From NCBI GenBank assembly GCA_027488845.1, contig JAIYBC010000025.1, forward strand, positions 1 to 64,000: a stretch of DNA of 64,000 bases. Direction: 5' to 3'. The position numbers and the translations under genes are program-made. Below, in pieces: positions 6,001-49,566 of the stretch. The DNA is from Verrucomicrobiales bacterium (GTDB lineage: Bacteria; Verrucomicrobiota; Verrucomicrobiia; Limisphaerales; UBA9464). Numbering within the stretch: position 1 is the first letter of the stretch; the number at the start of each line of letters is the position of its first letter. The notes beneath the pieces were generated by a model, which saw nothing but the letters and a program-made list of their open reading frames with translations, was not told the origin of the DNA and searched no databases.

Positions 6001-9000
6001 TCGAAGTTCAGCGTCACCACCGTCTCGTCGAAGCTCGGCGGGACGAACGTCGCCCCCGTGCCGTTCAACAGCGGGTCGTTGACCCCCATGAAGACCTTCA
6101 ACGCCTGGTTGAAGGCCGCCTCGGGGTCCGCCTGGATCTCCTCCTCGCTCGGCACGCTCGGGTCGTTCACCGGCGGGTTCTCCGACGGCGCGGAAAGCTG
6201 GTAGGGCTGGCCCAGCGGAAGGCCTTCCCAAAGGAAGCGCCCTTCGCGGTCCGCGCGGACGAAGCTGAAGCCCTCGTCCTCCGGATGGCACACCATCGCC
6301 CCCGGCATCGGACGCCCCTCCGCGTCGAGCACCAGCCCGACCACACGCGCCGCCGGGGTGAGCCGGATCAGGACGAAGTTGTCGTCACCCGGGAGCACCT
6401 CGATCGCGGCCGAGCCGAAGCGCGGGAAGTCGAACGGCGGATCCGACTGCGGCGGCCGGTTCGCGACGGACCGTTCCACGCCGGCCTGGAATTCGCGCCT
6501 TCCATAGGCCACGCCGGGGATCTCGAAGAAGCCCTGGGCGTCGGTCCGCACGATCTCGCGTCCGCCCGCGACCAACGCGTTGCCCACACCCCGCTCTCCC
6601 GCCGCCGTGAGCACCCGTCCACGGACCAGGGCCGAGCCGGGCAAGGCCAGCACAGCAAACGGCGTCTCGGCCTCCCGCAGCGTGATCCGCTCGGTCCCGG
6701 TGACCCGACGACCGTCCGAGGACAAGGCCGCCAGGGAGAAGTTGCCCACGGGGACGTCCGCGAACTCCCAACGGCCTTCGGCGTCGGCCGTGGTCTCGGC
6801 GAAGGCCCGGAAGCGCCCGAACCGATCCTGACCCGTCCCGATCAGAACCCGGGCGCCCGAATGCGGCGTCCGGCGGTCCGCCTCGGTCACGCGGCCCGCG
6901 ACGGAGGTCCGCGGATCCGCCAGCGCGTTGAAGCGCACCGTCAGCCGACGCACCTCGCCCGGCGCGTCCAGCGCGTCGTCGAGGATCCGCAGGCGTCCAA
7001 GGGAATCCTCCACCTTCAGGCTGAACACCCCCAACGGGACGCCGTGGAAGGAGAACCGGCCCTCGGAGTCCGAGAACACGCCCCGGCCCAGCTCGCGGCT
7101 CGCCGGATCCGGGAAGAGGTTCACCGCCGCGTTCGCCACCGGCGTCGTCCCGTCGGCCTGCAACACCACGCCCTCGACCGTTCCCCGGCCGCGGAAGGTC
7201 AGCACCATCGGGACGACGGTTCCTTCACGGCGCGATTCGGGCAGCACCAGGTCGTCGACGGTCGCCCGGTCGAGGCCTTCGGCCTGGGCGATCGCCTCGC
7301 CGACGGAGCCCGCCGCGAACATGCCCAACAACGTGTTTTGGAAACGCTCGGAGGTGGCCAGCTCGCGCATCCGGTCGCCTTGGACCACGCCCGCCACCGA
7401 GGCCTCCAGGATCAGGGACGTCCCCTCCGCCGACAGCGACGAGGTGTCGGTCGTGGCGACGGTGTAGGGGATGCCCGCCAACACGAAGTCGAAGCCGAAG
7501 TCGCCGTTGGTGTCGGTCAGCACCTGCGACGGACGGAAGATCCACTTCTTGCACTCGTCGAGGGATTCCACCGAATCCCGGTACACGAGGGTGACCGGGA
7601 TCCCGGCCACCGGGCTGCCGCCCGAACGCACCACGCGTCCCCGGACGGCGACGCCCGCCCGGCTGGACGAAAGGATCGCCCGCGAACGGTCGGTGATCGG
7701 ATGCCCGCGCGGATCGGTCACCGCCGCGTCCACCGAGACCGTCCGCGGCATCAGCCCGCCGACGGGCCGTTGCAACGTCAGCAACGCCACGCGTCCGCCG
7801 GGCTGGATCTGCACGGTTGCCGCGGTCGAACCGTCGTCCAGGCGGTAGGCCGCCGGCACGTTCACCCGGTCCTGGGACATCGGCTTCGAAAACAGCGCGG
7901 CGACGATGTTGGCGTAGTTGCCGATGCCGGGCAGCGGACACGGCTTCACAGGGCGTCCGACGAGCACCTCGAGGTCCTGACGGATCGAGACCAACTCCGG
8001 TGGAAGCTCCGTCACCGTGGTGGCCGTGCCGACGGACGGGACTCCCGGGATCCCGGTGCAGGTCGCATCCGAACGCAGCTCGGCGGAGGCCGGGAAGGGG
8101 TTCCAGTCATGGCAACCGGTTCGGGAAACCAATTCCCACGCCACCGCACGGCCCACGCCGTTGGTGCCGAGGACGAGGCCGTTCAGCCGGGTCGCGGCGT
8201 CGCCGGTGAGGCTCCATCGGACGAGGTCCGCCGGATCGGATCCGGGATCGCGGACGACGAGCCAGCCGGCGTTCGTCCCGCCATAGGCCACCGCACCGGG
8301 AATCGCGCTGCGCCGGATTCCGGCCTCGGAGGTCCCGCGGAGGAGGGTCACCTCGCCCGGTCCGCCGTCGAAGGCCGCCAGGAGCCAGGATTCGCCGCGG
8401 CCGGCGAGGTCGGGTCCGGCGGATTCGAGCAGACGGGCAGGCCCCTGCGGCGCGTGCAGCACCAGCTCGGCCATCACGGCCTCACGCCATTCGCGGCCGG
8501 CATCGGTCTCGCGGAGGATCTGGTCCCAACCCACCTGGAAGGAACGTCCGCCCTGCCAGTCGAGCATCAGGTCGAGCAACACGCGGTTCGTGGCGTCGCC
8601 GTAGAGGATGCGTTGGCCGGCCTCCGCGAGGTCCAACGAGCGCCGGGTGACGACCGAGCGGTCGAGACGGAGGACGCCGGCCGGCACGACGCCGGCGGTG
8701 GCCAGGCTCAGGGCCTGTCCGAGCATGCGGTCCGCGGCCCGGCGGATCCCGGGCGGCAGGTTCGTGACCAGGCCCGGAAGCCCGATCGTGTCGCCCGACA
8801 GCGCCACGCCGCGTTCATCGATGCCCATCGTCAGCAGGAACCTGCCGGTCGAGGCGTCGTCGCCAAGGGTCAGGTTGGAGAAGCGGATCGAACCGGTGCG
8901 CTGTGAACGCATGCGGTAGCGCGCCGTCGCACTCTGGCCGGGCGGGATGTCGCCGAGGAACACCGTCGGCTGCTGGTCGCCTTCGAACACGGTGCCGCTG

Positions 9001-36201: not shown

Positions 36202-37122
36202 CTATGGCTCACGCCACGGCCCGCCCCTTGTCCAGTGACCGGGCCAACCGCTCCGTGCCCGTGCCGCCTCGGCGGCCGGGAGCAGAAATCGTCCGACCAG
36301 CTTCACCACTTCCGCAAAATCTGGGTTTGGGTCGGTCCGGACGACCTTTCTCCAGAACGCCTTCCATTGTGTCCGCTTGACGGGTTCGGTTGCGAAGACG
36401 GTGCCCAGCCCAACGGGAACGGCCGCCGGAATCTCGGTGTTTCGCCGGGCGAACGTGGCGGAAATGGCCCGGGCCAGCCGCTCGCCTTGGAAATCGAACC
36501 GCTGCGAGAGGAGCCAAACGTCAAAGTAGTCCTTCATCCGGGTGTTGCGTTCTCCCAGTGAAACCATCGCCTCGAACTTTTCCGCCAAGGCGGTTTCCTT
36601 GGTGTAGGCCCGTAGGACGGGCTTTGGCATGTCGAGCAGGGTGGGAAACTCAATCTCCTCGGGCTCCAAGGTGAACGCGTCGCCGAAGCCGATGTCGGCC
36701 TGCACCGGGATGCGGGCATTGCCAACCCGCGCCCGGAGAGTGACCCGGACACCAACGTACTCTTGGTCTGCGCGGATCGGCTCCGCTTCGATGGACTCCA
36801 CCTCGAACTGCACACCGTCATCCACCGCGATGGAGCCGATTTCCCGGAAGGTGTCTGCCGCAACCGAGGGAGAATTGTCGCCGAAGCCGAGCAGGTCGGC
36901 GTCGCGTGTCACCCGCTCGCTCGATCCTTCTCCCCAGACAATCAAAAGCATGGCTCCCTTCAGGATGAACCGGGAATGGTGCGGCGAACGGGAGAGGCGA
37001 TAGAGCAGACGCTCCGTGCAGTAGCGCTCCAACAGATCCTGGAGCGACATCCTGGAGTTGCGAGAGAGCTGCAACAGCCGCGCTTGGACCGACGCGGCCA
37101 CGTTTGGGCCCTTCTGCTTCAT
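36202..37122 (-). CDS. abiEii: AbiEii-type nucleotidyltransferase toxin (type IV-like TA), 306 aa
   Basis: The AbiEii/AbiGii (DUF1814) nucleotidyltransferase core is seen: RFILKGAMLLIVWGEG, SSERVTRDADLLGFG with the catalytic D-x-D, and KFEAMVSLGERNTRMKDYFDVW, the family's K-F/E-A-M...R..KD..D motif. In AbiE systems this protein causes growth arrest and is neutralised through its partner. The start ATG (MKQKGPNVAAS) overlaps the upstream antitoxin gene by ATGA, so the two form an operon in the normal order. Length is typical. It stands at the left rim of a lower-GC defence cluster. Confidence 0.88.
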   Translation of the reverse strand: MKQKGPNVAASVQARLLQLSRNSRMSLQDLLERYCTERLLYRLSRSPHHSRFILKGAMLLIVWGEGSSERVTRDADLLGFGDNSPSVAADTFREIGSIAVDDGVQFEVESIEAEPIRADQEYVGVRVTLRARVGNARIPVQADIGFGDAFTLEPEEIEFPTLLDMPKPVLRAYTKETALAEKFEAMVSLGERNTRMKDYFDVWLLSQRFDFQGERLARAISATFARRNTEIPAAVPVGLGTVFATEPVKRTQWKAFWRKVVRTDPNPDFAEVVKLVGRFLLPAAEAARARSGWPGHWTRGGPWREP

Positions 37123-37712
37123 TCGAGCACTCCTTCCAGGTAGGGACGCATGACGTTGAGGACCCGGCAGACACGTGCGAACCGGTAGAGGTCCTCGGTC
37201 GTCACCTGCTTCTTTTTCCAGGCGTCCTTCAGCGCCTCTATGGCGGTCTTGGTGCCGATCTGATTTCGGAACTTGAAGCAGTCGGCCACCGTCTTGGCGG
37301 CGGAGTAGATCCGGACCGGCACACCGGCGATGGTGTGCGTCTCGATGCCCTCGTGAAACGAAGGCCCGGAGAAGTAGTGGACCTTGAGCTGGAGGGAATC
37401 GATCCGTGGTGCGCGGGAATGGCTCTCGATGGCGATCCAGACCGCCCCGGGGCTTTCGGTGGTGAGTTCGTGGAACCGAAGCGCCGACAGAAGGCAAACC
37501 ACGGCGTCGGGCTTCCGCAGCGCGAGGAGCGCTAGGTCCTCATGGGACTCGAGGGGCGCATCGGCGACACGGTAGATGCCACGCCCCATTTCAATCAGCC
37601 GACCTTCGCGGGCGAGCTTGCGGATGCCCATGCGGTGCACTGGGGAGGACCGCACACGAAAGAGCGCGGCGCCCGCCGTTCCTTCCTTTGGTTTCCTCGG
37701 ATTCGCACCCAC
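37119..37712 (-). CDS. abiEi: AbiEi-type antitoxin/transcriptional repressor, 197 aa
   Basis: Contains the second half of the AbiEi winged helix (HRMGIRKLAREGRLIEMGRG, then IYR) and the C-terminal AbiEi domain (DAVVCLLSALRFHELTT; SAAKTVADCFKFRNQIG; ALKDAWKKKQV). The start is GTG at 37712, fixed by an in-frame stop about 30 bp upstream. The segment before the recognition helix (GALFRVRSSPVHR) looks about a dozen residues shorter than usual, as if the first helices of the wHTH were partly lost, so DNA binding may be altered. It sits directly downstream of a strong inverted repeat. Known AbiEi proteins repress their own operon and counter AbiEii. Confidence 0.82.
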   Translation of the reverse strand: MGANPRKPKEGTAGAALFRVRSSPVHRMGIRKLAREGRLIEMGRGIYRVADAPLESHEDLALLALRKPDAVVCLLSALRFHELTTESPGAVWIAIESHSRAPRIDSLQLKVHYFSGPSFHEGIETHTIAGVPVRIYSAAKTVADCFKFRNQIGTKTAIEALKDAWKKKQVTTEDLYRFARVCRVLNVMRPYLEGVLE

Positions 37713-38234: not shown

Positions 38235-39308
38235 TTAGGTTGCCTTCAGGATTCGATGCAACTGCTTCGGATGGGTGTCAGGATGTAGTCCCAGTTTGGC
38301 CATGACCCAAAAGCTGCGCTTCTCTCCCTTCATTCCTAAGGCCTTGGCTTCATTCATGAGCTTGCGAGCCGTCTCCGCCTGGATCCTTCGCTCCGCTTGG
38401 CTTGCGCTCAACTTGGCTCCTTGACGCGGAACTCCACGCGCACGGTGGAGGCGGGTGATGGCTCGCCACTTCAAATCGCGGTCGTGGTCGAAGCTCCAGT
38501 AGCGCGGAATGAAAATCATCGTCCCGAATGGAGTGACATTGACACTCAGCTTCTGGAGGAGGGGTTTGTCTCCCTCCATTCCGTAGAGCATCCACTTGTG
38601 GCAGAACGCGTCGAAGATGTTGCGAAACCTATCCTCGCTGGACGTCCATTTGAAGTCCCACTCCTTGGGACGAAAGTTGCGCTCGGAAACCATCCGACGG
38701 CGGATCACCCCGGTCTCGCCCTGAAATTCTCGCAAGTCGAACCGCCCCCGAATCCATGCCCAATCATCCGTGAACTCTTTGTACTGTTTGAGGACGTCTT
38801 CCTTAAAATCGAATTTGTGCTGGGCCTTAATCAAGCTGTCGTAATTGCCTCCCTTAACAAGGTGCTCGTGTTCACTCAGGACCTCGCACGTCTTCTCCGC
38901 TGGCGGTTCTCCGATCAATCTCGTCAGGGCAACCAAGTCCTCGTCCGGCCGCATGCCTGACTCAACTTTCTCCAGCACTTGGCTCATCAATCCAATCACA
39001 TCAACAGGCCACAGGGAGAATGGCACCAGAAGCCACTGGTACAGACCATGGAGGTCCTCATCCTCGCGGCATCGAACAGGCAATGCGTGATACCTCTCGA
39101 TCAATGGCACTCCCGCCTTCATCCGGCGAAAAGCAAGTTTGGAGTGCCGGGCCAGATCCGCCTTCTTGCTAGCGAACAAACCGCCGCCGCGGCGGAGCCA
39201 TGACGTAAGGAACTCCAACGGCAGCCCCTGCTGATTACCAATGACTTGCATGTCTAGTTCCTCAGGAGTCATCGCATCAAGTGTAGCCGTGGGCATTTCA
39301 ACAGTCAC
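38235..39308 (-). CDS. Hypothetical protein of a defence cluster, 357 aa
   Basis: Soluble, charged protein without a family I recognise. Start is GTG at 39308 (MTVEMPTATL), with an ATG four codons in as alternative. It has a W/F-rich middle (EWDFKWTSSEDRFRNIFDAF), a strand-like GTMIFIPRYWSFDHDRDLKW and a basic C-terminal helix-rich tail (ASQAERRIQAETARKLMNEA...HPDTHPKQLHRIL) that could bind nucleic acid. GC is lower than in the backbone genes. It is divergent from the DUF2188/TIR-APAZ/pAgo operon with 147 bp between, and could share a regulatory region with it. Function unknown. Confidence 0.7.
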   Translation of the reverse strand: MTVEMPTATLDAMTPEELDMQVIGNQQGLPLEFLTSWLRRGGGLFASKKADLARHSKLAFRRMKAGVPLIERYHALPVRCREDEDLHGLYQWLLVPFSLWPVDVIGLMSQVLEKVESGMRPDEDLVALTRLIGEPPAEKTCEVLSEHEHLVKGGNYDSLIKAQHKFDFKEDVLKQYKEFTDDWAWIRGRFDLREFQGETGVIRRRMVSERNFRPKEWDFKWTSSEDRFRNIFDAFCHKWMLYGMEGDKPLLQKLSVNVTPFGTMIFIPRYWSFDHDRDLKWRAITRLHRARGVPRQGAKLSASQAERRIQAETARKLMNEAKALGMKGEKRSFWVMAKLGLHPDTHPKQLHRILKAT

Positions 39309-39455
39309 GACTTGAGGACAGAGAATGCGCGCAAATGTTGCCGTTTTCCGCCTTCCGTCCCTCGGCCATCGTCCCGACGCATCGGGTAGATGGATACGTC
39401 GCTCCCATCGGTGTGGTGGGCGAAAAGACTACCAACGCCCGAGGGAAAGCTAACT

Positions 39456-39674
39456 ATGTCTGAGCAACACGTTGTCAAAAGGGATGGCGGATGGGCGGTC
39501 CGGAAGGCGGGCGCCTCTCGCGACACCTCGCATCACAGCACTCAAAATCAAGCGATCAGTGCGGCCACCGAGATCGCAAGAAACCAGAGGAGTGAAGTCG
39601 TTGTGCATAGCGAGAACGGCAGGATCCGAGCCAAGAACAGTTACGGAAACGACCCGTTTCCTCCAAGAGGCTGA
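39456..39674 (+). CDS. DUF2188 small protein, 72 aa, first gene of the pAgo operon
   Basis: The sequence MSEQHVVKRDGGWAVRKAGA ... SEVVVHSENGRIRAKNSYGN matches the DUF2188 family, small basic proteins with the G-W-x-V opening and the GRIR.K.SYGNDP ending. GAGGG lies about 13 bp upstream of the ATG. The stop is only 5 bp before the TTG start of the TIR-APAZ gene, so co-transcription is very likely. Family function is not established. Here it may be a third part or a regulator of the Argonaute defence module; that is inference from position only. Confidence 0.85.
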   Translation: MSEQHVVKRDGGWAVRKAGASRDTSHHSTQNQAISAATEIARNQRSEVVVHSENGRIRAKNSYGNDPFPPRG

Positions 39675-39679
39675 CACCT

Positions 39680-41128
39680 TTGCCCCCGATGAGCATGGAA
39701 CCAAAGGACGTCTATATCTGCTACAACGGGGCTGACCTTGACTGGGTGAGGAGTCTGGTTGAGCAGATTGAGTCGGAGACCATTGACGGACGCTCGGGCT
39801 CCCGCCACCTAAGCGCATTCTTCGACAAATGGGACATCGCTCCAGGGCAAAGCCTGATTGATCAGATGAATGCGGGCATGAAATCCGCCCGTCATGTGCT
39901 CGCTGTATTGTCACCAGAATTCCTCAATGCCGATTGGCCAAGGTTCGAGTGGAAGCACATCGTAGCACAAGATCCCAACAACTCCCAAGGCCGCCTCATT
40001 CCCGCGTTGCTTCGTGATAGCAGCGTGGATGGCGGAGATCGCATTGACCTGTGCGCCCCATTTCGTGAATTACGGTATATTGATTTCCGCAAACAAGGCG
40101 AATTCAAAAGGGGGTTTATTGAGTTGATTCGCCGGATTCGAAATCTTCCACAGGAACGCGGGCGCAGACTTCCGCCGCTAACAGCAAACACCCCTGTACT
40201 CCCGATAACGGCACAGCCTGAGGTTTCTTGGTTGCCGGATAGCGTTTCAGATCTTTTGCTTTCCAACCTGCTGCCGGTCGTCGGCCTTCCCAGTCAGATC
40301 TGGAGTGCTGGGACAACTTTCCGTGATAAGAAGGAGGTTTGGGAGGTCGTTTCCAAAGCTGAGCCTTTCATTCTGCGTGATAAGCGAATCTACACCTTTG
40401 CAAACCTCAATACCCCTGCGACCCGGTTGAGGGATGCGATTGACACCGATTCCATTGGAAAGCCTGAGTCCTGCCACGATTGGTTCATTCGCGACGACAG
40501 ATCCAGCTGGCTGATGGCGTTACTCAATTCGAGCCTATCTGGACACCTGTGGTTCAGACATATCAAGCAAGATGGCAAGGGACGGTTCTTTTTTACCCCA
40601 GGGAAAGACAACACCGACCGGAGGTGGCAAATGCGGGAAGGACGGACAAGGACAGTTGCTGCCAAGAAGGAAAACCCGGCTACTCGTACCAGCTTCTGGG
40701 TTCATCATGCCGCTCGCATCAAATTCAAGCGCGTGGGCGAAAGGCTCTTTCTATCGGTTGAACCGCTGTATCTGTTTACCACCGATGGCAGGCTGGCAGT
40801 TGGCGGTAAAAACGCAGGAAAACTCTCCCTGCTTTGGGGTGGTCGCCAGCAGAATCCGGATATCCTGAGAAATCTACTGTTTTGGGGAGCAGTCCTCGCA
40901 GATAATGAAAAGAGCATAAGCATTCGGACCGGAGACAAACCGATAGTTCTCAGCCCCATTCCGGCCTCGGCCAAATTGGATCGCGGCATCGCCTTCGACG
41001 AAATCAGGATCAAAGCGCTCCTGGCACAGGAGGATGCCGACCTCGAAAAGGCCGCCATCGATATTCAATCGGACGTAAAGGACACGGAAAAGGGAGACGA
41101 AGAAGATGACGACACCACTTTCGAATAG
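39680..41128 (+). CDS. TIR-APAZ protein, NADase subunit of a SPARTA-type short Argonaute system, 482 aa
   Basis: N-terminal TIR domain (about 8-150): KDVYICYNGADLDWVRSL, FFDKWDIAPGQSLIDQM, HVLAVLSPEFL, and FEWKHIV with the likely catalytic Glu at residue 90. C-terminal APAZ region (about 190-460) with its hallmark strands SFWVHHAARIKFKRVGERLF, LSVEPLYLFTTDG and KLSLLWGGRQQNPDILRNLL. In SPARTA systems this subunit pairs with a short pAgo and destroys NAD(P)+ when a guide RNA finds target DNA, stopping infected or plasmid-bearing cells. The TTG at 39680 has AAGAGG 9 bp upstream; ATGs at 39689 and 39695 are alternatives. It overlaps the pAgo gene by 23 bp. The Asp/Glu-rich C-terminus (DTEKGDEEDDD) is notable. 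Confidence 0.9.
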   Translation: MPPMSMEPKDVYICYNGADLDWVRSLVEQIESETIDGRSGSRHLSAFFDKWDIAPGQSLIDQMNAGMKSARHVLAVLSPEFLNADWPRFEWKHIVAQDPNNSQGRLIPALLRDSSVDGGDRIDLCAPFRELRYIDFRKQGEFKRGFIELIRRIRNLPQERGRRLPPLTANTPVLPITAQPEVSWLPDSVSDLLLSNLLPVVGLPSQIWSAGTTFRDKKEVWEVVSKAEPFILRDKRIYTFANLNTPATRLRDAIDTDSIGKPESCHDWFIRDDRSSWLMALLNSSLSGHLWFRHIKQDGKGRFFFTPGKDNTDRRWQMREGRTRTVAAKKENPATRTSFWVHHAARIKFKRVGERLFLSVEPLYLFTTDGRLAVGGKNAGKLSLLWGGRQQNPDILRNLLFWGAVLADNEKSISIRTGDKPIVLSPIPASAKLDRGIAFDEIRIKALLAQEDADLEKAAIDIQSDVKDTEKGDEEDDDTTFE

Positions 41129-42731
41129 GCCATCACATCGGTCAGAACCACGCCGGAAGGAAGGACACTCAACACCAAGGTTCCTTGATGAACTGATTGA
41201 GACAAATCCATCCGTATTCAGTGCGTTTTATCTGGAAGAACCTAAACTTGTGTTCGGTGACGGCCTGTTGTCCGTTGATCCAAAGTCTGGCCTGGAAGTC
41301 CACGGTCCGTTTGGTTGGCAGAATGCGACAATCAAAACAATACGCTTAGGTGTGATCGGTACTGGCGAAGGAATTCAGGCCTTCCTCAATTTCCTTCAGA
41401 AAAGTCAAAGCCGAATCTCCGCCGGATTCAACACTCGCGGAAAGCCGCTTGACCCACATTGCTTCCCCGACTTCCCCGGATGCGCTCCCGAGCACACCTT
41501 TCGTTCATCGTTTGTCGCCGACAATCCCTCGCATCGGAAGGTAATCCATGAGGAATTGTTTGCCCGCGCGGCGGCCGAGCCGAATGAGCAGTCCCGAATT
41601 GAAGAAGTCGTACAGCTCGTCGTTAATCAGCTGTCTGCTCTACAAGACTTGAGCCCGGCGCCTGATGTGGTTGTCTTGGTGATGCCTTCCTCGGTCGAAG
41701 CTACCTGTGCGTCCATTGGCAATGTGTTCGCCCGTCAGAAGATCCGCCTGACTCCTCAACAACGGTTTCAACGCTCATTGCAGCGGGAAGCATCCACAAC
41801 TGGCCAAACGCTACTCGGCTTGGACTTCGACACAACGGACCAAACGGATTCACCTTCGCAGAGCGGTTTTTTCAACATCCATCATGCACTCAAAGCTCAT
41901 GCGATGCGAACGGGCCTGACAACACAGGTGGTTTGGGAAAGCACCCTGAGGGACTCGAACTCAGCCTCCGTTGCCTGGAATCTCTTCACAGCCATTTATT
42001 ACAAAGCGGGGAACAATCCTTGGCGACTGCAATCACTGCCAGACAACACCTGTTACGTTGGCGTTTCATTCTTTAGGGAAAGCCCAAGAATCGGTGCGGA
42101 TATGCACACGAGCTTGGCGCAAGTGTTCGGCGCGGGCGAAGGAATTGTCCTGAAAGGTGAGAAGGCCGTGTTTAACAAGGAGCGTGATCGTAAACCTCAC
42201 CTGAATGAGGTTGGCGCTGAAAAGCTCCTAGCGCGCGCAATTCGATCCTACACGCTCCAGCACAATGGCCCCCCTAAGCGTGTGGTGGTCCACAAGACAT
42301 CGCGTTTCTGGCCAGAAGAGCTGAGGGGCCTCCGCAAAGCCTTGGGGGCGATCTATTACTATGACTTTCTCGCCCTTGAATCACGGGAGACTCGATTCAT
42401 GCGGGTGGGCAAGAAGCCCCCGTTGAGGGGAACCGTGATCCAGTTGGGACGACGCAATTACATCATTTACTGCAACGGCTATGTGCCCTACCTGAGAGCC
42501 TACCCTGGAAAACGAATCCCGCGGCCGCTGGAGGTAGTCGAACATCACGGTGATTCTCCGGCGGTGACTGTGTGCCAAGAAATCCTCGCGCTGACAAAAC
42601 TCAATTGGAACAGTTGCGCCTTTGGCAGTGGAGTTCCAATCACGATCCGATTTGCGCGCGATGTCGGAAGAATTCTCACCGAGGTTCCAAACAACCTGAA
42701 TCCGGAAACCAAATACAAGTTCTACATGTAG
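41106..42731 (+). CDS. Short prokaryotic Argonaute (MID-PIWI), SPARTA partner, 541 aa
   Basis: The opening shows the short-pAgo pattern LEEPKLVFGDGLLSVDPKSG then LEVHGPF. The MID region is followed by a PIWI fold: DNTCYVGVSFFRE (the position normally holding the first catalytic Asp is Ser321), PPKRVVVHKTSRFWPEEL and the conserved end LTKLNWNSCAFGSGVPITIR...YKFYM. Loss of the Asp points to a catalytically dead guide-binding subunit, as known for short pAgos. GGGAG lies about 9 bp before the ATG, inside the TIR-APAZ gene. Predicted to load a guide RNA and to trigger the TIR NADase on target recognition. The basic, Pro/Arg-rich first 25 residues are not seen in all relatives. Confidence 0.9.
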   Translation: MTTPLSNRPSHRSEPRRKEGHSTPRFLDELIETNPSVFSAFYLEEPKLVFGDGLLSVDPKSGLEVHGPFGWQNATIKTIRLGVIGTGEGIQAFLNFLQKSQSRISAGFNTRGKPLDPHCFPDFPGCAPEHTFRSSFVADNPSHRKVIHEELFARAAAEPNEQSRIEEVVQLVVNQLSALQDLSPAPDVVVLVMPSSVEATCASIGNVFARQKIRLTPQQRFQRSLQREASTTGQTLLGLDFDTTDQTDSPSQSGFFNIHHALKAHAMRTGLTTQVVWESTLRDSNSASVAWNLFTAIYYKAGNNPWRLQSLPDNTCYVGVSFFRESPRIGADMHTSLAQVFGAGEGIVLKGEKAVFNKERDRKPHLNEVGAEKLLARAIRSYTLQHNGPPKRVVVHKTSRFWPEELRGLRKALGAIYYYDFLALESRETRFMRVGKKPPLRGTVIQLGRRNYIIYCNGYVPYLRAYPGKRIPRPLEVVEHHGDSPAVTVCQEILALTKLNWNSCAFGSGVPITIRFARDVGRILTEVPNNLNPETKYKFYM

Positions 42732-43102: not shown

Positions 43103-44020
43103 TCAAAACAGGCGCACCAAATCGGGATCATTCCGCAAGCAGATGCACCACTTTGCGACTGAAGAAAACTCAACGTCAGGCCTGGTCATTGCCTCGATTC
43201 GTCGTGCCGCTTGTTCCATCGTTTCACCTGGCAATGGGTTCCTTACGGGATGGAAATTCGCTTTGGCTTCAAGGAATTCCTTGATGGCTCCGCTCACATC
43301 GCTCCAGAATTTGCGGCGCCTCTCCGGAAGAGCGTCATGTTCGTTGAGCTTGTATCGCTTAATCGACTCCTCTGCTCGTGCCTTATTCCATTTCGCGGAA
43401 TCCGTCGCCCAATTGTCGGCGCTTGGGAGAGGTATCGCGTTTCCTTCTTCGTCGAAGGCGAGCAAGAGAGGGTCGGATGCTCTGATCGGATCGAGCAAGT
43501 AAGGGAACTCTGAATCTTCGCAACGGTTGCCGAAGGTGGAAGAAAGGCTTCCATTGCAGAGTGGAAACCATCCGCCCTTCTTAGTGTTCGGCGCTCCACC
43601 GGCCAGTCGGTAATTGGTGTAGTCGAAGGCCAGCCACCAGTAGCCTTCCCGCACAGTCCCGTCGAGGTTCTTGGCCTCGGCCTTTGGTCGGAAATGCTCC
43701 ACGTCGTAGTGTGAGCCGTTGTTTGTGGTGTCCGTAAACCAGCATTTACCGCCAGAAAGCGCAAAAAGCCATGGCTTCAACTTCCCCCAATGCGCCGACT
43801 TCTTGCTGATGAATTCATTGCGCTCCGCCCGCTTTGCATCGGCACCTTTAGTGTTGCCCGCTGATTCGAGTTTGGTGCGCTCCATGTCAATCTCGGCCGC
43901 GTGCCTATGCAATTCGGCGGAATCCTTTAGCCATTTGTCCCATTCACTCTTGCTCCAAGGCGTCCAGCCGGGAATATCCTTGTCCATGGGCGTCTTGTTT
44001 TTGAAATCAATGTGCCTCAT
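43103..44020 (-). CDS. ptuB: HNH endonuclease, PtuB-like (Septu-type), 305 aa
   Basis: HNH core at about 90-155: GGKCWFTDTTNNGSHYDVEH then FRPK, with D106-x-E108-H109, followed by GYWWLAFDYTNYRLAGGAPN and KKGGWFPLCN. The Y-W-W-L-A-F-D..N and PK elements are those of PtuB-type HNH proteins, but the usual zinc Cys pair near the N...K is changed (AGGAPNTKK). The ATG overlaps the upstream AAA ATPase stop by 4 bp. In Septu, PtuA and PtuB form a complex that cuts nucleic acid on phage infection. Family naming is by similarity of architecture; the symbol is provisional. Confidence 0.8.
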   Translation of the reverse strand: MRHIDFKNKTPMDKDIPGWTPWSKSEWDKWLKDSAELHRHAAEIDMERTKLESAGNTKGADAKRAERNEFISKKSAHWGKLKPWLFALSGGKCWFTDTTNNGSHYDVEHFRPKAEAKNLDGTVREGYWWLAFDYTNYRLAGGAPNTKKGGWFPLCNGSLSSTFGNRCEDSEFPYLLDPIRASDPLLLAFDEEGNAIPLPSADNWATDSAKWNKARAEESIKRYKLNEHDALPERRRKFWSDVSGAIKEFLEAKANFHPVRNPLPGETMEQAARRIEAMTRPDVEFSSVAKWCICLRNDPDLVRLF

Positions 44021-45756
44021 GCTTTTTTCCTTTCTGCGAGGATTTTGTCAATAATCGCGCTGGCCGCCTTGTTCTGCGCCGCCTGCTCTTCCGGTGTGAG
44101 CACGTCCTTGTGAAACTCGGTTCGTAACGCCATTTGCTTCACGAACATCTCCAGATAAGGATCCTTAAAATCGCTGGCAAACCCAAGTTCAGACAACTCC
44201 CCACTGAGCTTGGTCATCTCAACATTCTGAGCCTTGGTTCGTTTGTCTCCGAGGGCGTAGAGGTAGTTGCGGTGGTCGAGTCGGCGGCGGGTTTCGGTAT
44301 CCACGGTGGAGCGGAGGCCGAAGAGTTCGCTCTTCAGGAGCCCGGCGAAGCCCATGCCTTGCGGATTCTCGTTGGGCTCATCGACCTCATTCGCACTTAC
44401 GAATCCAGCCCTTTTCTTGAATATGCGCACTTGTTCCTTGAGGAGGCTGCCAACCATGAGCGGATCATGAGTGGTAATGATGATTTGAGAATCACCACCA
44501 ACCAAACCGTCCGCACTCGGCGGAAGCACTGCTTGAATTCGTTCAAAAAACCTCAGTTTCCAAATGGGATTGAGATGAGTGTCGGGCTCGTCCAACAGAA
44601 ACAGACAGTTCTCTTCACTGGTAATCCGCATCAGCCCCAGAACAGTTAATAGCTGAAGTTCCCCTTCGGATAACTGCGTGTAGGACACATTTCCTTCGAC
44701 GTCCTGGTGTTTTACATTGATTCTAACCTCTTCAATGAGGTCACCAACGTAAGCACCTTCAGCATAACGGAAGAATACTTCAGGTGGACCGACCAGATCG
44801 CCGAGTCTTTTCAAAGCCTCTTTATCAGGCACAAAAAGGTAGAGCTGCTCTTGCTTTTCGTGGCGTCCTCGAAAATCAATCAGCTTGCTGGCCGTGTCGT
44901 TGATCGGTGCGATAGCCACTTTCCAAAGCTTGTCCAAAAACTCGGACACCACAGTACCTGCGGCGAACCAGAAACGGTTGTCCCCATATCGGATATTGGG
45001 CTCCGGCACGTCCGACCGGAGATTATGGGGCTGCTTTAAGACAAAGAGAGCCGAATCCAGTTCCACTATTTGCAGATCCTCCAGAATCTTCGTAAAGACC
45101 GGGTCTTCTGAAAGCAAACAGGCAAGCAGGACAAGCTGGGTATGCCCACCACGGCAGTAGAAGAGGCGGCGGAGTTGGTCCTCACCAAGTCGTTTCTGTC
45201 GCAATTCAAGAGCGCGCTGCCGCTTTTTGATTGCAGCAGAGCCCGCTTCCGTCCCAGTAAAGCTTTCAATTAAATGCGCTGGCAATTGCTCCTCGGCTGC
45301 AAGCCGCATGCGCTGATTGAATCGATGCAGATGCTGCTGAAAGAGACTCTCGATTCGCTCATTCTTCCCCGAGTAATATGCGAAAATGTGGGCAGGCAGA
45401 TAGCTGTTCGGGTTTTCAGCGATCTCTTTGCTGGAACTGGATCGCGTATTGATGACAACGCTGGGTTTCCTGCCCTTCTGTGCCTTTAGCTCGATGCAAT
45501 GCTTAGCGCCATCTCGATCACGCGTTTGGTAGTCCAGTTCGTAGTCGAAGGTGGCCGCCGCATCCAAATCCAGATCGCGAAAAATGGTGATGATCGCTTC
45601 CAGAAGATTGGATTTCCCTGAACCATTCTGGCCGATGATGGCATGGCTCTTCAATTCACGTTGCCTGCCGTCGGCGTCCTTGGCCGACGGGGTGAAGGTG
45701 ATCTCAAAGTCCCGGAGGTTACGGAACTCGCGGATTTGGAGGCGGCTCAGGTGCAT
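44017..45756 (-). CDS. ptuA: AAA/ABC-type (SMC-like) ATPase, PtuA-like (Septu-type), 579 aa
   Basis: Walker A IIGQNGSGKSN at residues 42-49, ABC-type signature TQLSEGELQL (362-366), Walker B CLFLLDEPDTH (D389-E390) and the switch His in IIITTHDPLMVG. The N-terminus (LQIREFRNLRDFEITF) is typical of RecF/OLD/PtuA-like ATPases. There is no TOPRIM (OLD nuclease) at the C-terminus; instead a helical tail is followed by a separate HNH gene, matching PtuA-PtuB. It starts 16 bp after the hsdS stop on the same strand, so it is probably expressed as part of the type I RM operon. Confidence 0.85.
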   Translation of the reverse strand: MHLSRLQIREFRNLRDFEITFTPSAKDADGRQRELKSHAIIGQNGSGKSNLLEAIITIFRDLDLDAAATFDYELDYQTRDRDGAKHCIELKAQKGRKPSVVINTRSSSSKEIAENPNSYLPAHIFAYYSGKNERIESLFQQHLHRFNQRMRLAAEEQLPAHLIESFTGTEAGSAAIKKRQRALELRQKRLGEDQLRRLFYCRGGHTQLVLLACLLSEDPVFTKILEDLQIVELDSALFVLKQPHNLRSDVPEPNIRYGDNRFWFAAGTVVSEFLDKLWKVAIAPINDTASKLIDFRGRHEKQEQLYLFVPDKEALKRLGDLVGPPEVFFRYAEGAYVGDLIEEVRINVKHQDVEGNVSYTQLSEGELQLLTVLGLMRITSEENCLFLLDEPDTHLNPIWKLRFFERIQAVLPPSADGLVGGDSQIIITTHDPLMVGSLLKEQVRIFKKRAGFVSANEVDEPNENPQGMGFAGLLKSELFGLRSTVDTETRRRLDHRNYLYALGDKRTKAQNVEMTKLSGELSELGFASDFKDPYLEMFVKQMALRTEFHKDVLTPEEQAAQNKAASAIIDKILAERKKA

Positions 45757-45772
45757 CAGATTAAGCGATTGG

Positions 45773-47776
45773 TTATACGATACCCGTTACTTCGGGACCT
45801 CCGTAGCTCATTGGCCAGCTTCCACGAACTGATGCTTCTGTGGTCGTGGATTTTTCAGTGCGTTCCTCCAATATCTTCATTTCGGCTTCCTTGGGTGGGG
45901 CGATCCAGCCTTGGGCAAGTTCGGTCTTGAGTTGCTGGTAGAAGGCGTCGATCGACAGGCCGGATTTTTGCCAGAGAGATTTGGCGGGTAGCATCCCGCT
46001 GTATTGGATGAGGAGCTGGGCCAAAGGGGCTTTGGCATCGGGCTTGGGCGTTTTGCCAAGTGCGACGAGTGAGACCAGTTCGGTTCTGGGTGCTTTCATC
46101 TTTTTAGGTCTGTCGAGTTGAGTGGTGCCGGTGAAGGAAGCGACGCAGGCTTTGGCGAAGGCTTCGGCCAGCTTGTCCCGCTCCTGCTGTTGCGCCTCCA
46201 AGTGGTCCACCACGGCCATCAGTTCATCTACCTTGGCGACGATGCGGCGTTGTTCGGCGAGGGGTGGAAATGGGACCGGACAGCCTCTGACCTGACGCAT
46301 ATTGATGGATGCCAGATTGGTCGTCTGCTTGGAAGCAGACTCGAAGTAGCTTCGACCTATCGGCGAGTTGAAATAGCGTTCAAACCAAACGGGGAGGATT
46401 TCGTTTGAGCGAAAGCGTGAACGAAACACATGATTCTGGTGCAGGCAGACAGGTATCTGTCCTTTCCAGATGGCTGCCCGCCCGACTTTGTCCCAATCGC
46501 CACCTTCGGTCATCAGGAGGTCGTTTTCCCGGAGGGCATAGCGCTCCACTTCGTCAGTCGCGATAGAGACTTTCTTGATCACGCTGGTGTCAATTTCTCC
46601 CCGCTTGACGTTGGCTACGCGAAGGTATGGCAAAGTCACAGTTTCCCTGCCGACAAGGCTGCGCCCGAGTGTGACACCTCCTGCCGTCAACGCGACATCT
46701 TCAAATCGAACCCACTTCCATGATGTCGGTAGTGCTTCTGTAGTTTGGTCGGCCCTGAAGGTTGCTTTTAGTCCTAGGCGCGTAAGACAGATCTCGGCTG
46801 GTTCGTCATCTGGGTGTTGTGGTATCAGCTTTCCTTGAACAGCGAGTGTCAATATTGAACGTCTCAAGTCATCGGCGGAAACCGCGCCGGTTTCGTCGAA
46901 GATGCGGTTGAGGTTGGCGGGGGTGGGGGCTTCGGCGAAGAGGGCGTGACAGGTGCGGGAGAGCACGGGGAAGCGCCGTACCCGTTCCTGCTGCTGCGCC
47001 CCCAGTTGATCGCACAAGGCCATCAACTCTTCCACCTTCGCCACGATCCGCTTTTGTTCGGCGAGGGGTGGGAGAGGTATTTCAAACTGTCCCAAGACCT
47101 TCTTGCTCAGGCCCTCGCGAGCCATGCCAACCTGCCGCCCCCAGATCATTGCCTGACCAAATGGTGAAAGCAGACACAATCTGATGAACTGCCTCACATC
47201 AGTTAACGCAGTACGAACGATGGTTACATGTTGGCTTACGTTTGCAGTTCCCAAGTCACCGGAAACCAAGGCGCAACGGCCAAGGGAAGCGCCCGTGATG
47301 TTTAGCAAAATATCATCAACCTGGACGTGCGTGCCCTTCATCGAGGCATGAGTTTCGTCTGGAATGTAAACCACATCGTGCATGCGCAGCCCTTCGTTCC
47401 AGACGTTTTGTGAGCGCAAAAACGGAATGCCTTTCGAGACATACACCTTGCTCCCACCTCTCGGGGTGCTGCCTGATCCGATCTTGGTGGTGAGATCACC
47501 GAGTTTACACCATAGCCAATGGGAGGGGACAGCTTCTAACTCGGATGGCGCAGCAGCAGCCGTGATCGTGGCCAGTTTCGCCCCTTCCGACTTTGCGAAA
47601 GCAAGACGTGCAGCCTGGATTCGGCCGTTAAGATCTCCTGCGGTCCCTTCTGACTCGTCTTTGTCAGTCAAGTGACCTGTGACGGCCAGTTGGAGAACAA
47701 CCTCGCGTAACCGCGCCACGCCGCCGGGGGCGTTGGCGATGTCTCTGAAGTTGGCTAGAAAAGCCTCAGCATTCAT
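45773..47776 (-). CDS. hsdS: Type I restriction-modification specificity subunit HsdS, 667 aa
   Basis: Two target-recognition domains, each ended by the conserved coiled spacer: LPPLAEQKRIVAKVEELMAL and FPPLAEQRRIVAKVDELMAV. The TRD strands SHWLWCKLGDLTTKIGSGST and SWKWVRFEDVALTAGGVTLG mark the starts. Beyond the second spacer there is an extra C-terminal region of about 110 residues (LAQLLIQYSGMLPAKSLWQK, SIDAFYQQLKTEL) that looks like a small helical or wHTH domain. The start ATG (MNAEAFLANF) overlaps the hsdM stop (ATGA). It sets the DNA sequence recognised by the HsdR-HsdM complex. Confidence 0.93.
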   Translation of the reverse strand: MNAEAFLANFRDIANAPGGVARLREVVLQLAVTGHLTDKDESEGTAGDLNGRIQAARLAFAKSEGAKLATITAAAAPSELEAVPSHWLWCKLGDLTTKIGSGSTPRGGSKVYVSKGIPFLRSQNVWNEGLRMHDVVYIPDETHASMKGTHVQVDDILLNITGASLGRCALVSGDLGTANVSQHVTIVRTALTDVRQFIRLCLLSPFGQAMIWGRQVGMAREGLSKKVLGQFEIPLPPLAEQKRIVAKVEELMALCDQLGAQQQERVRRFPVLSRTCHALFAEAPTPANLNRIFDETGAVSADDLRRSILTLAVQGKLIPQHPDDEPAEICLTRLGLKATFRADQTTEALPTSWKWVRFEDVALTAGGVTLGRSLVGRETVTLPYLRVANVKRGEIDTSVIKKVSIATDEVERYALRENDLLMTEGGDWDKVGRAAIWKGQIPVCLHQNHVFRSRFRSNEILPVWFERYFNSPIGRSYFESASKQTTNLASINMRQVRGCPVPFPPLAEQRRIVAKVDELMAVVDHLEAQQQERDKLAEAFAKACVASFTGTTQLDRPKKMKAPRTELVSLVALGKTPKPDAKAPLAQLLIQYSGMLPAKSLWQKSGLSIDAFYQQLKTELAQGWIAPPKEAEMKILEERTEKSTTTEASVRGSWPMSYGGPEVTGIV

Positions 47777-49542
47777 GAGGCGGACTCGGCGGTGGTAAAG
47801 TGATGGGCGAGGGCGGCGGACAGCTCGGCTTTCAGCTTGGACTCGGTTTCGGCGATGCTTTGGCAGACGGCCCGATACTTTTGCAGTAGCTTGTCGACGT
47901 CTTGGGTTTCTTCCTCGGGGGCGTTGGGGTTCTTGAGGTCGAGGTTGTAGATGGGCCAAAAATGGCGGTCGCCGATGGACTGCTGCTCGCGGGATTGTTG
48001 GCGGAGGGCTTCGGCTTGTTCGGTGAGGGTGGTGATTTTGGCCTCGGCCTTGTTGCGCTTGGTGGCGTCCTTCTCGCCTTTGAGGGCGTCGCGCAGGTCT
48101 TTGATCTGGTTGGATAGCGCGGTGGCGTCGTTGCTGAGGGACTCCGCCTTGTCCCAGTGGGGCTTGGCCTTGGCTTCTGCCTCGGCTTTGATCTGCTTGA
48201 AGTTGATCTTCCAGGCCTGCTCAGACTCGGTGCGGATGGCAAAGCCGTCGGACTCGCTGCCCCACCACTGGACGATGGGATCAAACTCTTCGACGCGCAG
48301 AGGCTTGGTTTTGCTGTAGCTCTTCACGCCTGCAGGGTAGCGGTGCTCGTAGAACCAGATGGTGTCTGTGGGTTTGCCCTTGGTGAAGAAGAGCAGGTTG
48401 GTCTTGATGCCGGTGTAGGGGGCGAAGACTCCATTGGGCAGGCGGATGATGGTGTGCAAGTGGCACTCCTCCATGAGCAGCTTCTTCACCTTGGCCTTCA
48501 CGCCTTCGCCAAAAAGGGTGCCGTCTGGCAGGACCACGGCTCCGCGCCCGCCTTTGTCCTTGAGCAGCTTTTTGACGATGAGGACGAGAAACATGTCCGC
48601 CGTCTCGCGAGTGCGGATGTCGGACGGGTAGTCATTGCCCACGCCGTCGTCTTCCATGCCGCCGAAGGGTGGATTGGTGATGACGCAGCTCACGCGCTCG
48701 GTGAGCTTCCAGTCGTTCCAGCCAGTGGCGAGGGTATTGCGGTGCTCGATCATGCTGGGCACGTCGATGCCGTGGAGCATCATGTTTGTGACGCAGAGCA
48801 GATGCGGGAGCTGTTTCTTCTCGATGCCTCGGATGCACTGGGCGATGGCTTTGCGATCCTCCGCACCGGACTTCTTGCTGATCTGGGCTTCAAGATGCGT
48901 GATGGTGGCAGTGACGAAGCCGCCCGTGCCACAAGCGGGATCAAGCATGGTTTCACGCTTCTTGAGGTCGGGATTGACCATCTTCACCATGAACTCGGTG
49001 AGGGCACGCGGGGTGTAGAACTCCCCGGCATTCCCGGCGCTGCGCAGGTCATTGAGGATCTGCTCATACACATCCCCAAGCTGCCCACGGCTCTTGATGT
49101 CGTGGAAGTTGACGGCTTCATCCAGCTTCTCGATGACGGCTAGCATCTGGGTGCCGGACTTCATGTAATTGTTGGTGTCCTGGAAGACATCCCGCACGAC
49201 TTTGGCCTTGGGATTGCCCTCGATGTCGAGCTGCTGGAGGCCGGGGAAGACGACGTCGTTGACGTGTTTGATCAACTCGCTGGCCTGGATGCGGGGCTTT
49301 TTCTTGCCCTTATCGTCCTCAACGTATTTGGCCCAGTTCCGCCATCGGCAGTCCTCGGGTATCGGCGATTTGTATTTCTTGCGCGTGTCGGCCGCGTCGT
49401 CTTCCCAGGTTTCCTCACACTGATCGAAGATTTTGAGGAAGAGCATCCACGTAAGCTGGCCGATGCGCTGGGCATCGCCATCGACGCCGTCGTCCTTGCG
49501 CATGATGTCCTGGATGGACTTGATAGTGCTACTGAGGTTCAT
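47773..49542 (-). CDS. hsdM: Type I restriction-modification DNA methyltransferase HsdM, 589 aa
   Basis: HsdM N-terminal helical domain (about 1-150), then SAM motif I DPACGTGGFV (201-210) and the adenine N6-methyltransferase catalytic motif NPPFGG (290-295). A C-terminal coiled region (DATALSNQIKDLRDALKGEK and on) contacts HsdS. Start chosen at MNLSSTIKSI; an upstream TTG would add seven residues. It follows hsdR after 24 bp and overlaps hsdS by 4 bp. Typical of the EcoEI-like (type IB) family. Confidence 0.95.
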   Translation of the reverse strand: MNLSSTIKSIQDIMRKDDGVDGDAQRIGQLTWMLFLKIFDQCEETWEDDAADTRKKYKSPIPEDCRWRNWAKYVEDDKGKKKPRIQASELIKHVNDVVFPGLQQLDIEGNPKAKVVRDVFQDTNNYMKSGTQMLAVIEKLDEAVNFHDIKSRGQLGDVYEQILNDLRSAGNAGEFYTPRALTEFMVKMVNPDLKKRETMLDPACGTGGFVTATITHLEAQISKKSGAEDRKAIAQCIRGIEKKQLPHLLCVTNMMLHGIDVPSMIEHRNTLATGWNDWKLTERVSCVITNPPFGGMEDDGVGNDYPSDIRTRETADMFLVLIVKKLLKDKGGRGAVVLPDGTLFGEGVKAKVKKLLMEECHLHTIIRLPNGVFAPYTGIKTNLLFFTKGKPTDTIWFYEHRYPAGVKSYSKTKPLRVEEFDPIVQWWGSESDGFAIRTESEQAWKINFKQIKAEAEAKAKPHWDKAESLSNDATALSNQIKDLRDALKGEKDATKRNKAEAKITTLTEQAEALRQQSREQQSIGDRHFWPIYNLDLKNPNAPEEETQDVDKLLQKYRAVCQSIAETESKLKAELSAALAHHFTTAESAS

Positions 49543-49566
49543 GTGGGGGAGTAACCGGAACAATCT

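What the first reader, a model, noticed from the sequence alone, without database searches (positions are those of the whole stretch)
39456..42731. DUF2188 gene as a third member of a SPARTA (TIR-APAZ / short Argonaute) operon
A 72-aa DUF2188 gene ends 5 bp before the TIR-APAZ start, which itself overlaps the pAgo gene by 23 bp. Known SPARTA systems are described as two-component. A conserved small basic partner could be a nucleic-acid-binding accessory, a guide-loading factor or a regulator. Seen: spacing, family matches, Ser in place of a PIWI catalytic Asp, TIR Glu90. Inferred: functional link.
Basis: partly seen in the sequence, partly recalled or inferred. Interest (0 to 1): 0.8.

Follow-up and report, generated by a model that had tools for sequence, protein, structure and literature searches.

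The report
Small gene heading Argonaute defence operon
A tiny protein gene of unknown role sits first in a bacterial Argonaute self-destruct defence operon in two species, but close relatives of the operon lack it and the same small gene also heads unrelated defence operons, so it looks like a portable add-on rather than a dedicated part of the Argonaute machine.

Summary
A 72-aa DUF2188 gene (39456-39674) directly precedes a TIR-APAZ gene and a short pAgo gene that overlap by 23 bp. The gap is 5 nt from a TTG start or, more likely, 14 nt from the ATG shared with a second species.

The triplet is not an accident. A metagenome-assembled Verrucomicrobia genome carries the same three genes, same order and spacings (74/85/85% protein identity), with unrelated flanks. 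But three more distant orthologous operons lack DUF2188, as do 11 other short-pAgo loci. Of 80 close DUF2188 loci only one adjoins a pAgo.

DUF2188 instead recurs at the head of CBASS, Bub-like and TIR operons, beside divergent HTH/ImmA or WYL regulators, and beside integrases. PADLOC already lists it as single-gene candidate PDC-S16. A small near/far PADLOC test (3/20 against 2/20) did not show general defence enrichment.

The label 'SPARTA' is also doubtful. The APAZ and pAgo score best against nuclease-type (SPARDA/HNH) partners, not SPARTA; the pAgo tree alone is not decisive.

Best reading: a portable accessory gene co-expressed with the Argonaute effector, not a dedicated subunit. Its biochemical role is unknown.

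The parts
39456..39674 (+). DUF2188 gene, 72 aa (PADLOC PDC-S16), first gene of the cassette; predicted fold beta-beta-beta-alpha-beta-beta with a conserved Gly-x-Asp-Pro-x-Pro-Pro C-terminal tail
39689..41128 (+). TIR-APAZ gene (alternative TTG start at 39680); TIR_2 domain plus an APAZ of the nuclease-associated type
41106..42731 (+). short pAgo (MID-PIWI, no acidic catalytic motif seen), 541 aa, overlaps TIR-APAZ by 23 bp
39309..39455 (.). divergent intergenic region, presumed promoter of the cassette (no sigma-70-like site and no inverted repeat found)
38235..39308 (-). divergent 357-aa ORF of unknown family, in the position where many relatives have HTH/ImmA or WYL regulators; no match in Pfam, PADLOC, NCBIfam or plasmids

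Best explanation
DUF2188 here is a portable accessory gene placed first in a TIR-APAZ/short-pAgo abortive-infection cassette and co-transcribed with it. It is not a required subunit. The Argonaute pair most likely does the immune work: a guide-loaded, catalytically dead pAgo recognises invader DNA and the TIR domain destroys NAD+ (inferred from SPARTA). DUF2188 most likely acts beside it on something common to many immune operons, such as a shared host or phage target, being expressed from the same promoter. Shown: gene order, conservation of the triplet in two species, absence from three orthologous operons, recurrence before unrelated immune operons and beside Cap-type regulators. Inferred: co-transcription, independent action, any target.
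For: Triplet conserved with the same spacings and unrelated flanks in L074. Three orthologous operons exist without it; G018 is listed without any DUF2188, and G143 and G243 are not among the 27 genomes with one. Same family directly before CBASS CapV (13 of 80 genome loci, 4 of 57 after removing near-copies), CD-NTase, Cap15, Bub-like, TIR and ~210-aa family genes. Divergent M78 (ImmA/IrrE) or WYL gene within 1.5 kb upstream in 18 of 57 non-redundant loci against 7 hits in about 540 kb elsewhere. The CapV label needs 3 changes on the DUF2188 tree, 2 of them forced by well-supported branches. C-terminal tail conserved across contexts.
Against: Random near/far PADLOC test: 3 of 20 immediate neighbours against 2 of 20 genes at 4 kb or more, so general defence enrichment is not shown. 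The family models used for the zone test were seeded from DUF2188 neighbours, which favours the near zone. In the window the divergent gene matches no known regulator. The DUF2188 gene changes faster at codon positions 1 and 2 than TIR-APAZ or pAgo (22% against 8% and 8%), so selection on it is weaker. Many close relatives simply sit beside integrases (17 of 80 genome loci beside an integrase or reverse transcriptase; 32 of 78 viral loci beside an integrase).
Confidence: 0.5

Rival explanations
1. DUF2188 is a regulator of the cassette: a small co-repressor, anti-repressor or feedback protein that works with the divergently encoded controller at the shared promoter.
For: Promoter-proximal position; divergent M78/HTH or WYL regulators recur next to it; the L074 cassette has a divergent WYL protein; the second DUF2188 of the same genome is divergent from a WYL protein.
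Against: It lies on the operon side, not the regulator side; it has no recognised DNA-binding domain and the fold search gave no clear match; the window has no recognised regulator beside it; 39 of 57 non-redundant loci have none divergently within 1.5 kb by these models.
Confidence: 0.2
2. DUF2188 is a dedicated third subunit or guide-loading factor of this TIR-APAZ/pAgo complex.
For: Triplet conserved in two species with 14-nt spacing; third-position divergence of DUF2188 is close to that of its partners (0.55 against 0.46 and 0.50), as expected if all three were inherited together.
Against: Absent from three of five operons of the group and from 11 of 11 other short-pAgo loci; the same family heads operons with no Argonaute; published SPARTA is a heterodimer (PMC11156904 passages).
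Confidence: 0.12
3. DUF2188 is a mobile-element cargo gene that hitch-hikes, serving the element rather than the host's immunity (for instance a counter-defence protein), and landed before the cassette by insertion.
For: Beside an integrase in 32 of 78 viral loci and beside an integrase or reverse transcriptase in 17 of 80 genome loci; present in 29 of 50,697 phage records, 18 of them Streptococcus; weak similarity of the predicted fold to an anti-CRISPR protein (7f45, Z 5.2, rmsd 2.8, 56 residues; 7eqg, named AcrIF5, Z 5.0), below the level the tool treats as telling.
Against: Codon-position differences in the cassette point to purifying selection (17/14/38 in 69 codons); in 17 of the 18 genome loci with an immune gene next, that gene starts 2-25 nt after DUF2188.
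Confidence: 0.15

Closest known systems
SPARTA (short pAgo + TIR-APAZ, clade S2A)
   Same: Operon of TIR-APAZ and a catalytically dead short pAgo; TIR at the N terminus, APAZ at the C terminus; overlapping genes.
   Different: PADLOC APAZ models: REase-type 115 bits, SIR2-type 105.5, TIR-type 25.8. APAZ profile matches nuclease-APAZ (99.6%, E 5e-24) and not SPARTA APAZ (7%, E 0.005). The pAgo scores higher against HNH/DUF4365-partnered chains (252, 238 bits) than against SPARTA chains (175 or less) (which entries are SPARTA is recalled). Extra DUF2188 gene.
SPARDA and HNH-APAZ short pAgo systems (S2B-like)
   Same: Closest APAZ and pAgo sequences in the PDB: 9om4, 9qbp, 9qbl, 9jsb.
   Different: TIR instead of a DUF4365, SMEK or HNH nuclease domain. 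The passages read list DUF4365 and DHS-like for S2B (PMC12205087) and DUF4365, SIR2 or none for APAZ group IIb (PMC6299218). One published APAZ protein carries both a REase and a TIR domain (PMC10810196, passage).
PDC-S16 (PADLOC single-gene phage-defence candidate)
   Same: DUF2188 of the window matches both PDC-S16 models (E 2.8e-35 and 1.9e-34).
   Different: Nothing; it is a member by sequence. No paper of the library holds the name 'PDC-S16'.
Cap-controlled immune operons (CapH+CapP, CapW, CapK+CapS) with a YegP-like gene
   Same: A small protein gene of unknown role heads or adjoins immune operons beside such controllers; 57 of 443 capKS pairs are followed by a yegP homologue (PMC13373217, section 7 read).
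   Different: DUF2188 is another Pfam family (the YegP-like gene in L124 is DUF1508; that YegP is DUF1508 is recalled); in the window the divergent gene is not a recognised controller.

Membership tests
SPARTA | TIR domain fused to APAZ, encoded with a short pAgo | tested here: met
SPARTA | short MID-PIWI pAgo without catalytic acidic motif | tested here: met
   541 aa, no N or PAZ match in Pfam
SPARTA | pAgo belongs to clade S2A (SPARTA) | tested here: inconclusive
   Tree keeps the five apart from three SPARTA-like pAgos (100/100) and PDB scores favour SPARDA/HNH, but a joint clade is not rejected (p-AU 0.176) and a clade with nuclease-type pAgos is not rejected either (0.35)
SPARTA | SPARTA-type APAZ | tested here: not met
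   PADLOC REase-type APAZ 115 bits against TIR-type 25.8; profile comparison 99.6% against nuclease-APAZ, 7% against SPARTA APAZ, with small alignments of 5, 6 and 2 rows
SPARTA | guide/target-triggered NAD(P)ase activity and tetramer of heterodimers | not testable with these tools
   needs purified proteins
SPARDA | nuclease domain fused to APAZ | tested here: not met
   TIR_2 instead
DUF2188 / PDC-S16 | match over Pfam cut-off and to the PADLOC models | tested here: met
Cap-controlled immune operon | WYL, HTH+M78 or CapK/CapS controller adjoining the operon | tested here: not met
   By family match only: the divergent 357-aa ORF of the window has no match in Pfam, PADLOC or NCBIfam. The orthologous cassette in L074 does have a divergent WYL protein

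The most novel reading that the evidence does not exclude
DUF2188 is a general plug-in immune protein that many unrelated self-destruct systems (CBASS, Bub, TIR, TIR-Argonaute) take up as their first gene under damage-responsive control, acting through one conserved C-terminal motif on one common target; and this TIR-Argonaute pair is a second, independent origin of SPARTA built on a SPARDA-type APAZ.
Probability: 0.25. Interest if true: 0.78.

Novelty: new variant of a known kind. Interest (0 to 1): 0.5.

Why it matters
If right, it removes a likely false lead (a SPARTA-specific guide loader) and replaces it with a testable one: a small protein reused at the head of chemically unrelated abortive-infection operons. 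One mechanism solved in an easy system such as CBASS would then inform all of them. The TIR effector on a nuclease-type APAZ would show that short-Argonaute platforms swap effectors, so TIR-APAZ presence alone cannot be used to call SPARTA.

Tried and rejected
Dedicated SPARTA subunit: weakened by absence in orthologues. Chance adjacency: rejected by L074. General defence enrichment by a less biased scan: not shown (3 of 20 against 2 of 20; the 20 were drawn at random from 36 eligible of 57 non-redundant loci; genes were called by ORF length, so some near 'genes' may be spurious, which lowers the near count). Fold of DUF2188: model pLDDT 81, pTM 0.67; Foldseek found nothing at E 0.001 or better; the second look gave an anti-CRISPR protein at Z 5.2 and YaiA at Z 4.2, too low to use. 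Promoter, terminator and operator scans: no promoter-like site or inverted repeat before DUF2188, terminator-like sites no more than in shuffles. More operons of this TIR-APAZ group in viral contigs: none confirmed by two peptide patterns each for TIR-APAZ and pAgo; in plasmids no place covers 80% of the TIR-APAZ. The ~210-aa family next to DUF2188 in 10 of 80 loci: the member L101 has no match in Pfam, PADLOC or NCBIfam. dN/dS between window and L074: synonymous change was saturated for DUF2188 and the pAgo run failed on a stop codon, so I used codon-position differences instead. Conservation of the DUF2188 tail in the 80 loci is partly built in, because the scan pattern covers residues 57-66; the set found without that pattern also has Asp66, Pro69 and Pro70 invariant in 20 of 20. 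One intended reference protein was dropped for stops.
Full report
What is there. The window holds three co-directional genes: DUF2188 (39456-39674, 72 aa), TIR-APAZ (ends 41128) and short pAgo (41106-42731). DUF2188 passes the Pfam cut-off by a wide margin (83.4 bits against 22) and matches PADLOC's PDC-S16 models (E 2.8e-35). The TIR-APAZ reading frame can start at TTG 39680 (5 nt after DUF2188) or ATG 39689 (14 nt). The ATG start aligns with the start of the closest orthologue, which also has a 14-nt gap, so 14 nt is more likely. The pAgo shows VGVSFF, VVVHKTS and LNWNSC at the PIWI motifs, without the acidic residues, and the TIR Glu is invariant in 5 of 5 orthologues.

Surroundings. The cassette lies in a defence island: AbiEi/AbiEii (36202-37712, minus strand), PtuA/PtuB of Septu (43103-45756, minus strand) and type I restriction genes (HsdM and HsdS domains, 45773-49563, minus strand). 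DUF2188, TIR-APAZ, pAgo, the divergent ORF and the Septu genes are 53-57% G+C, against 64.5% for the window.

Is the triplet conserved? The main similarity between the two loci runs in one piece of 3164 bases from inside DUF2188 to just past the pAgo stop; the flanks show none. L074 has a divergent WYL-domain protein upstream; the window has a 357-aa protein of no known family there. Codon-position differences between the two DUF2188 genes are 17/14/38 in 69 codons. Third-position divergence is 0.55 against 0.46 (TIR-APAZ) and 0.50 (pAgo), and positions 1 and 2 change about 2.7 times faster than in the partners. So all three were probably inherited together, with weaker constraint on DUF2188.

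Is DUF2188 a core component? No. Three more operons of the same TIR-APAZ group (61, 53 and 44-45% identical) came from 387 genomes of the phylum (19 had some match, 4 including the window's own full-length) and again from 384 of the class. None has DUF2188 in the 18-20 kb fetched. G018 is listed without any DUF2188; G143 and G243 are not among the 27 of 387 genomes with one, if they were in that sample as the shared handles suggest. Eleven other short-pAgo loci (SPARTA-like, nuclease-type, SIR2 and others, 5.7-17 kb each) also have none. One of 80 close DUF2188 loci adjoins a pAgo, and none of the 29 other DUF2188 places looked at in the phylum has TIR-APAZ or pAgo within about 1.5 kb.

Where else does DUF2188 sit? 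I opened 12 DUF2188 regions on plasmids, chosen by me from 529 records for variety. In 5 of 12 it directly precedes a defence-type gene set: CBASS in L060, L066 and L067, a TIR gene in L069, multiubiquitin/E2/ThiF in L068. In 8 of 12 it adjoins an XRE or HTH plus ImmA-type regulator. Among the 80 genome loci, an immune gene from my reference set follows it in 18 (9 of 57 after removing near-copies), a Cap-type regulator lies divergently within 1.5 kb upstream in 31 (18 of 57), both in 13 (6 of 57), a ~210-aa family of unknown function follows in 10, YegP-like DUF1508 in 2, and an integrase or reverse transcriptase lies just upstream in 17. The references were drawn from DUF2188 neighbours, several of them from the 80 loci themselves. 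With iterated profiles the divergent M78 or WYL genes number 18 in the near zone of 57 loci (80.7 kb) and 7 elsewhere (about 540 kb), binomial p 2e-11; for the same reason this overstates the contrast.

A test that went the other way. For 20 loci drawn at random (of 36 eligible among 57), the immediate neighbour matched PADLOC at 1e-10 in 3 of 20 (CapV, CD-NTase, methyltransferase) and a gene at 4 kb or more in 2 of 20. One more near neighbour, multiubiquitin in L087, is seen only by Pfam and just under its cut-off (24.1 against 24.5 bits). So a broad defence enrichment is not shown; the association concerns a minority of copies and particular operon types.

Phages and proviruses. DUF2188 is in 29 of 50,697 phage records, 18 of them Streptococcus, and in 205 confirmed viral contigs. 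Of 78 viral loci in which the gene could be located (of 80 kept), 32 have it just behind an integrase and 11 near an ImmA-type gene. This supports a mobile, cargo-like history.

Tree of DUF2188. With only 74 columns the tree is poorly resolved. Neighbourhood labels cluster on it (24 changes, shuffled mean 55; near-copies help this). The CapV label needs 3 changes, 2 forced by well-supported branches. The window and L074 fall together without support (22).

Is it SPARTA? By parts list, yes: TIR, APAZ and a dead short pAgo. By kinship it points elsewhere. The pAgo scores 252 and 238 bits against HNH- and DUF4365-partnered chains and at most 175 against SPARTA chains (which entries are SPARTA is recalled, since the listing does not name it), while pAgos of two annotated TIR systems score 353-421 bits against those SPARTA chains. 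PADLOC gives 115 bits for REase-type APAZ and 25.8 for TIR-type. The only APAZ-bearing chains matched in the PDB are HNH- and DUF4365-type. The APAZ profile matches nuclease-APAZ at 99.6% probability and SPARTA APAZ at 7%. The tree of 16 pAgos keeps the five apart from three SPARTA-like pAgos, but a joint clade is not rejected (p-AU 0.176), nor is one with the nuclease types (0.35). Published clades: S2A holds TIR-APAZ systems, S2B mainly DUF4365- or DHS-like-APAZ (PMC12205087, passage; PMC11156904, passages). APAZ group IIb held DUF4365, SIR2 or no extra domain (PMC6299218, passages). An APAZ protein with both REase and TIR domains has been reported (PMC10810196, passage).

Structure. AlphaFold2 gives strands 3-9, 12-17, 23-27, helix 30-44, strands 47-51, 57-62 and no regular structure after that (pLDDT 81 overall, 58 for residues 61-70). 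No solved fold matches clearly. The tail holds Asp66, Pro69 and Pro70, invariant in 20 of 20 rows found without a pattern on that region.

Literature. Seven papers of the library hold 'DUF2188' and none concerns defence by its title (listing only); none holds 'PDC-S16'. The main text of the Argonaute survey PMC6299218 has no 'DUF2188'. Searches for SPARTA and short-pAgo papers, seen as listings, showed no title on a three-gene TIR-APAZ operon. The preprint behind the PDC candidates (Payne 2024, cited in PMC12988326, passages) is not held and was not read, nor was Koopal 2022. A close analogue is the small YegP-type gene that follows CapK/CapS controllers in 57 of 443 cases (PMC13373217, abstract, passages and section 7).

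Verdict. I read it as a portable accessory gene co-expressed with a TIR-bearing short Argonaute pair built on a nuclease-type APAZ. Its molecular role remains open.

Noticed in passing
window 36202-37712, 43103-45756, 45773-49563 (all minus strand): Defence island around the cassette: AbiEi/AbiEii, Septu PtuA/PtuB and type I restriction HsdM/HsdS.
   Followed up: partly
L002 / L028 (G000:C67:2282-2461, minus strand): A second DUF2188 in the same genome, divergent from a WYL regulator and followed by a small HNH plus glycine-zipper gene.
   Followed up: partly
L099, L100, L101, L120, L122, L128, L130, L132, L143, L145: A ~210-aa protein family directly follows DUF2188 in 10 of 80 loci; its member L101 has no Pfam, PADLOC or NCBIfam match.
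   Followed up: partly
L121, L124: DUF2188 directly followed by a YegP-like DUF1508 gene, beside a WYL regulator in L124.
   Followed up: no
L166-L245: DUF2188 lies 47-77 nt behind a tyrosine recombinase on the same strand in 32 of 78 viral loci.
   Followed up: no
L064 (Indioceanicola profundi plasmid) 3126-7563: AbiEi, AbiEii, TIR-APAZ and a SPARTA-like pAgo lie in one overlapping row, as if AbiE were joined to SPARTA.
   Followed up: no
L081, L084, L085, L086, L092: DUF2188 behind a group II intron-type reverse transcriptase (naming recalled from the sequence).
   Followed up: no
window 38235-39308 (minus strand): 357-aa protein of unknown family in the place where many relatives have immune-operon regulators.
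   Followed up: partly
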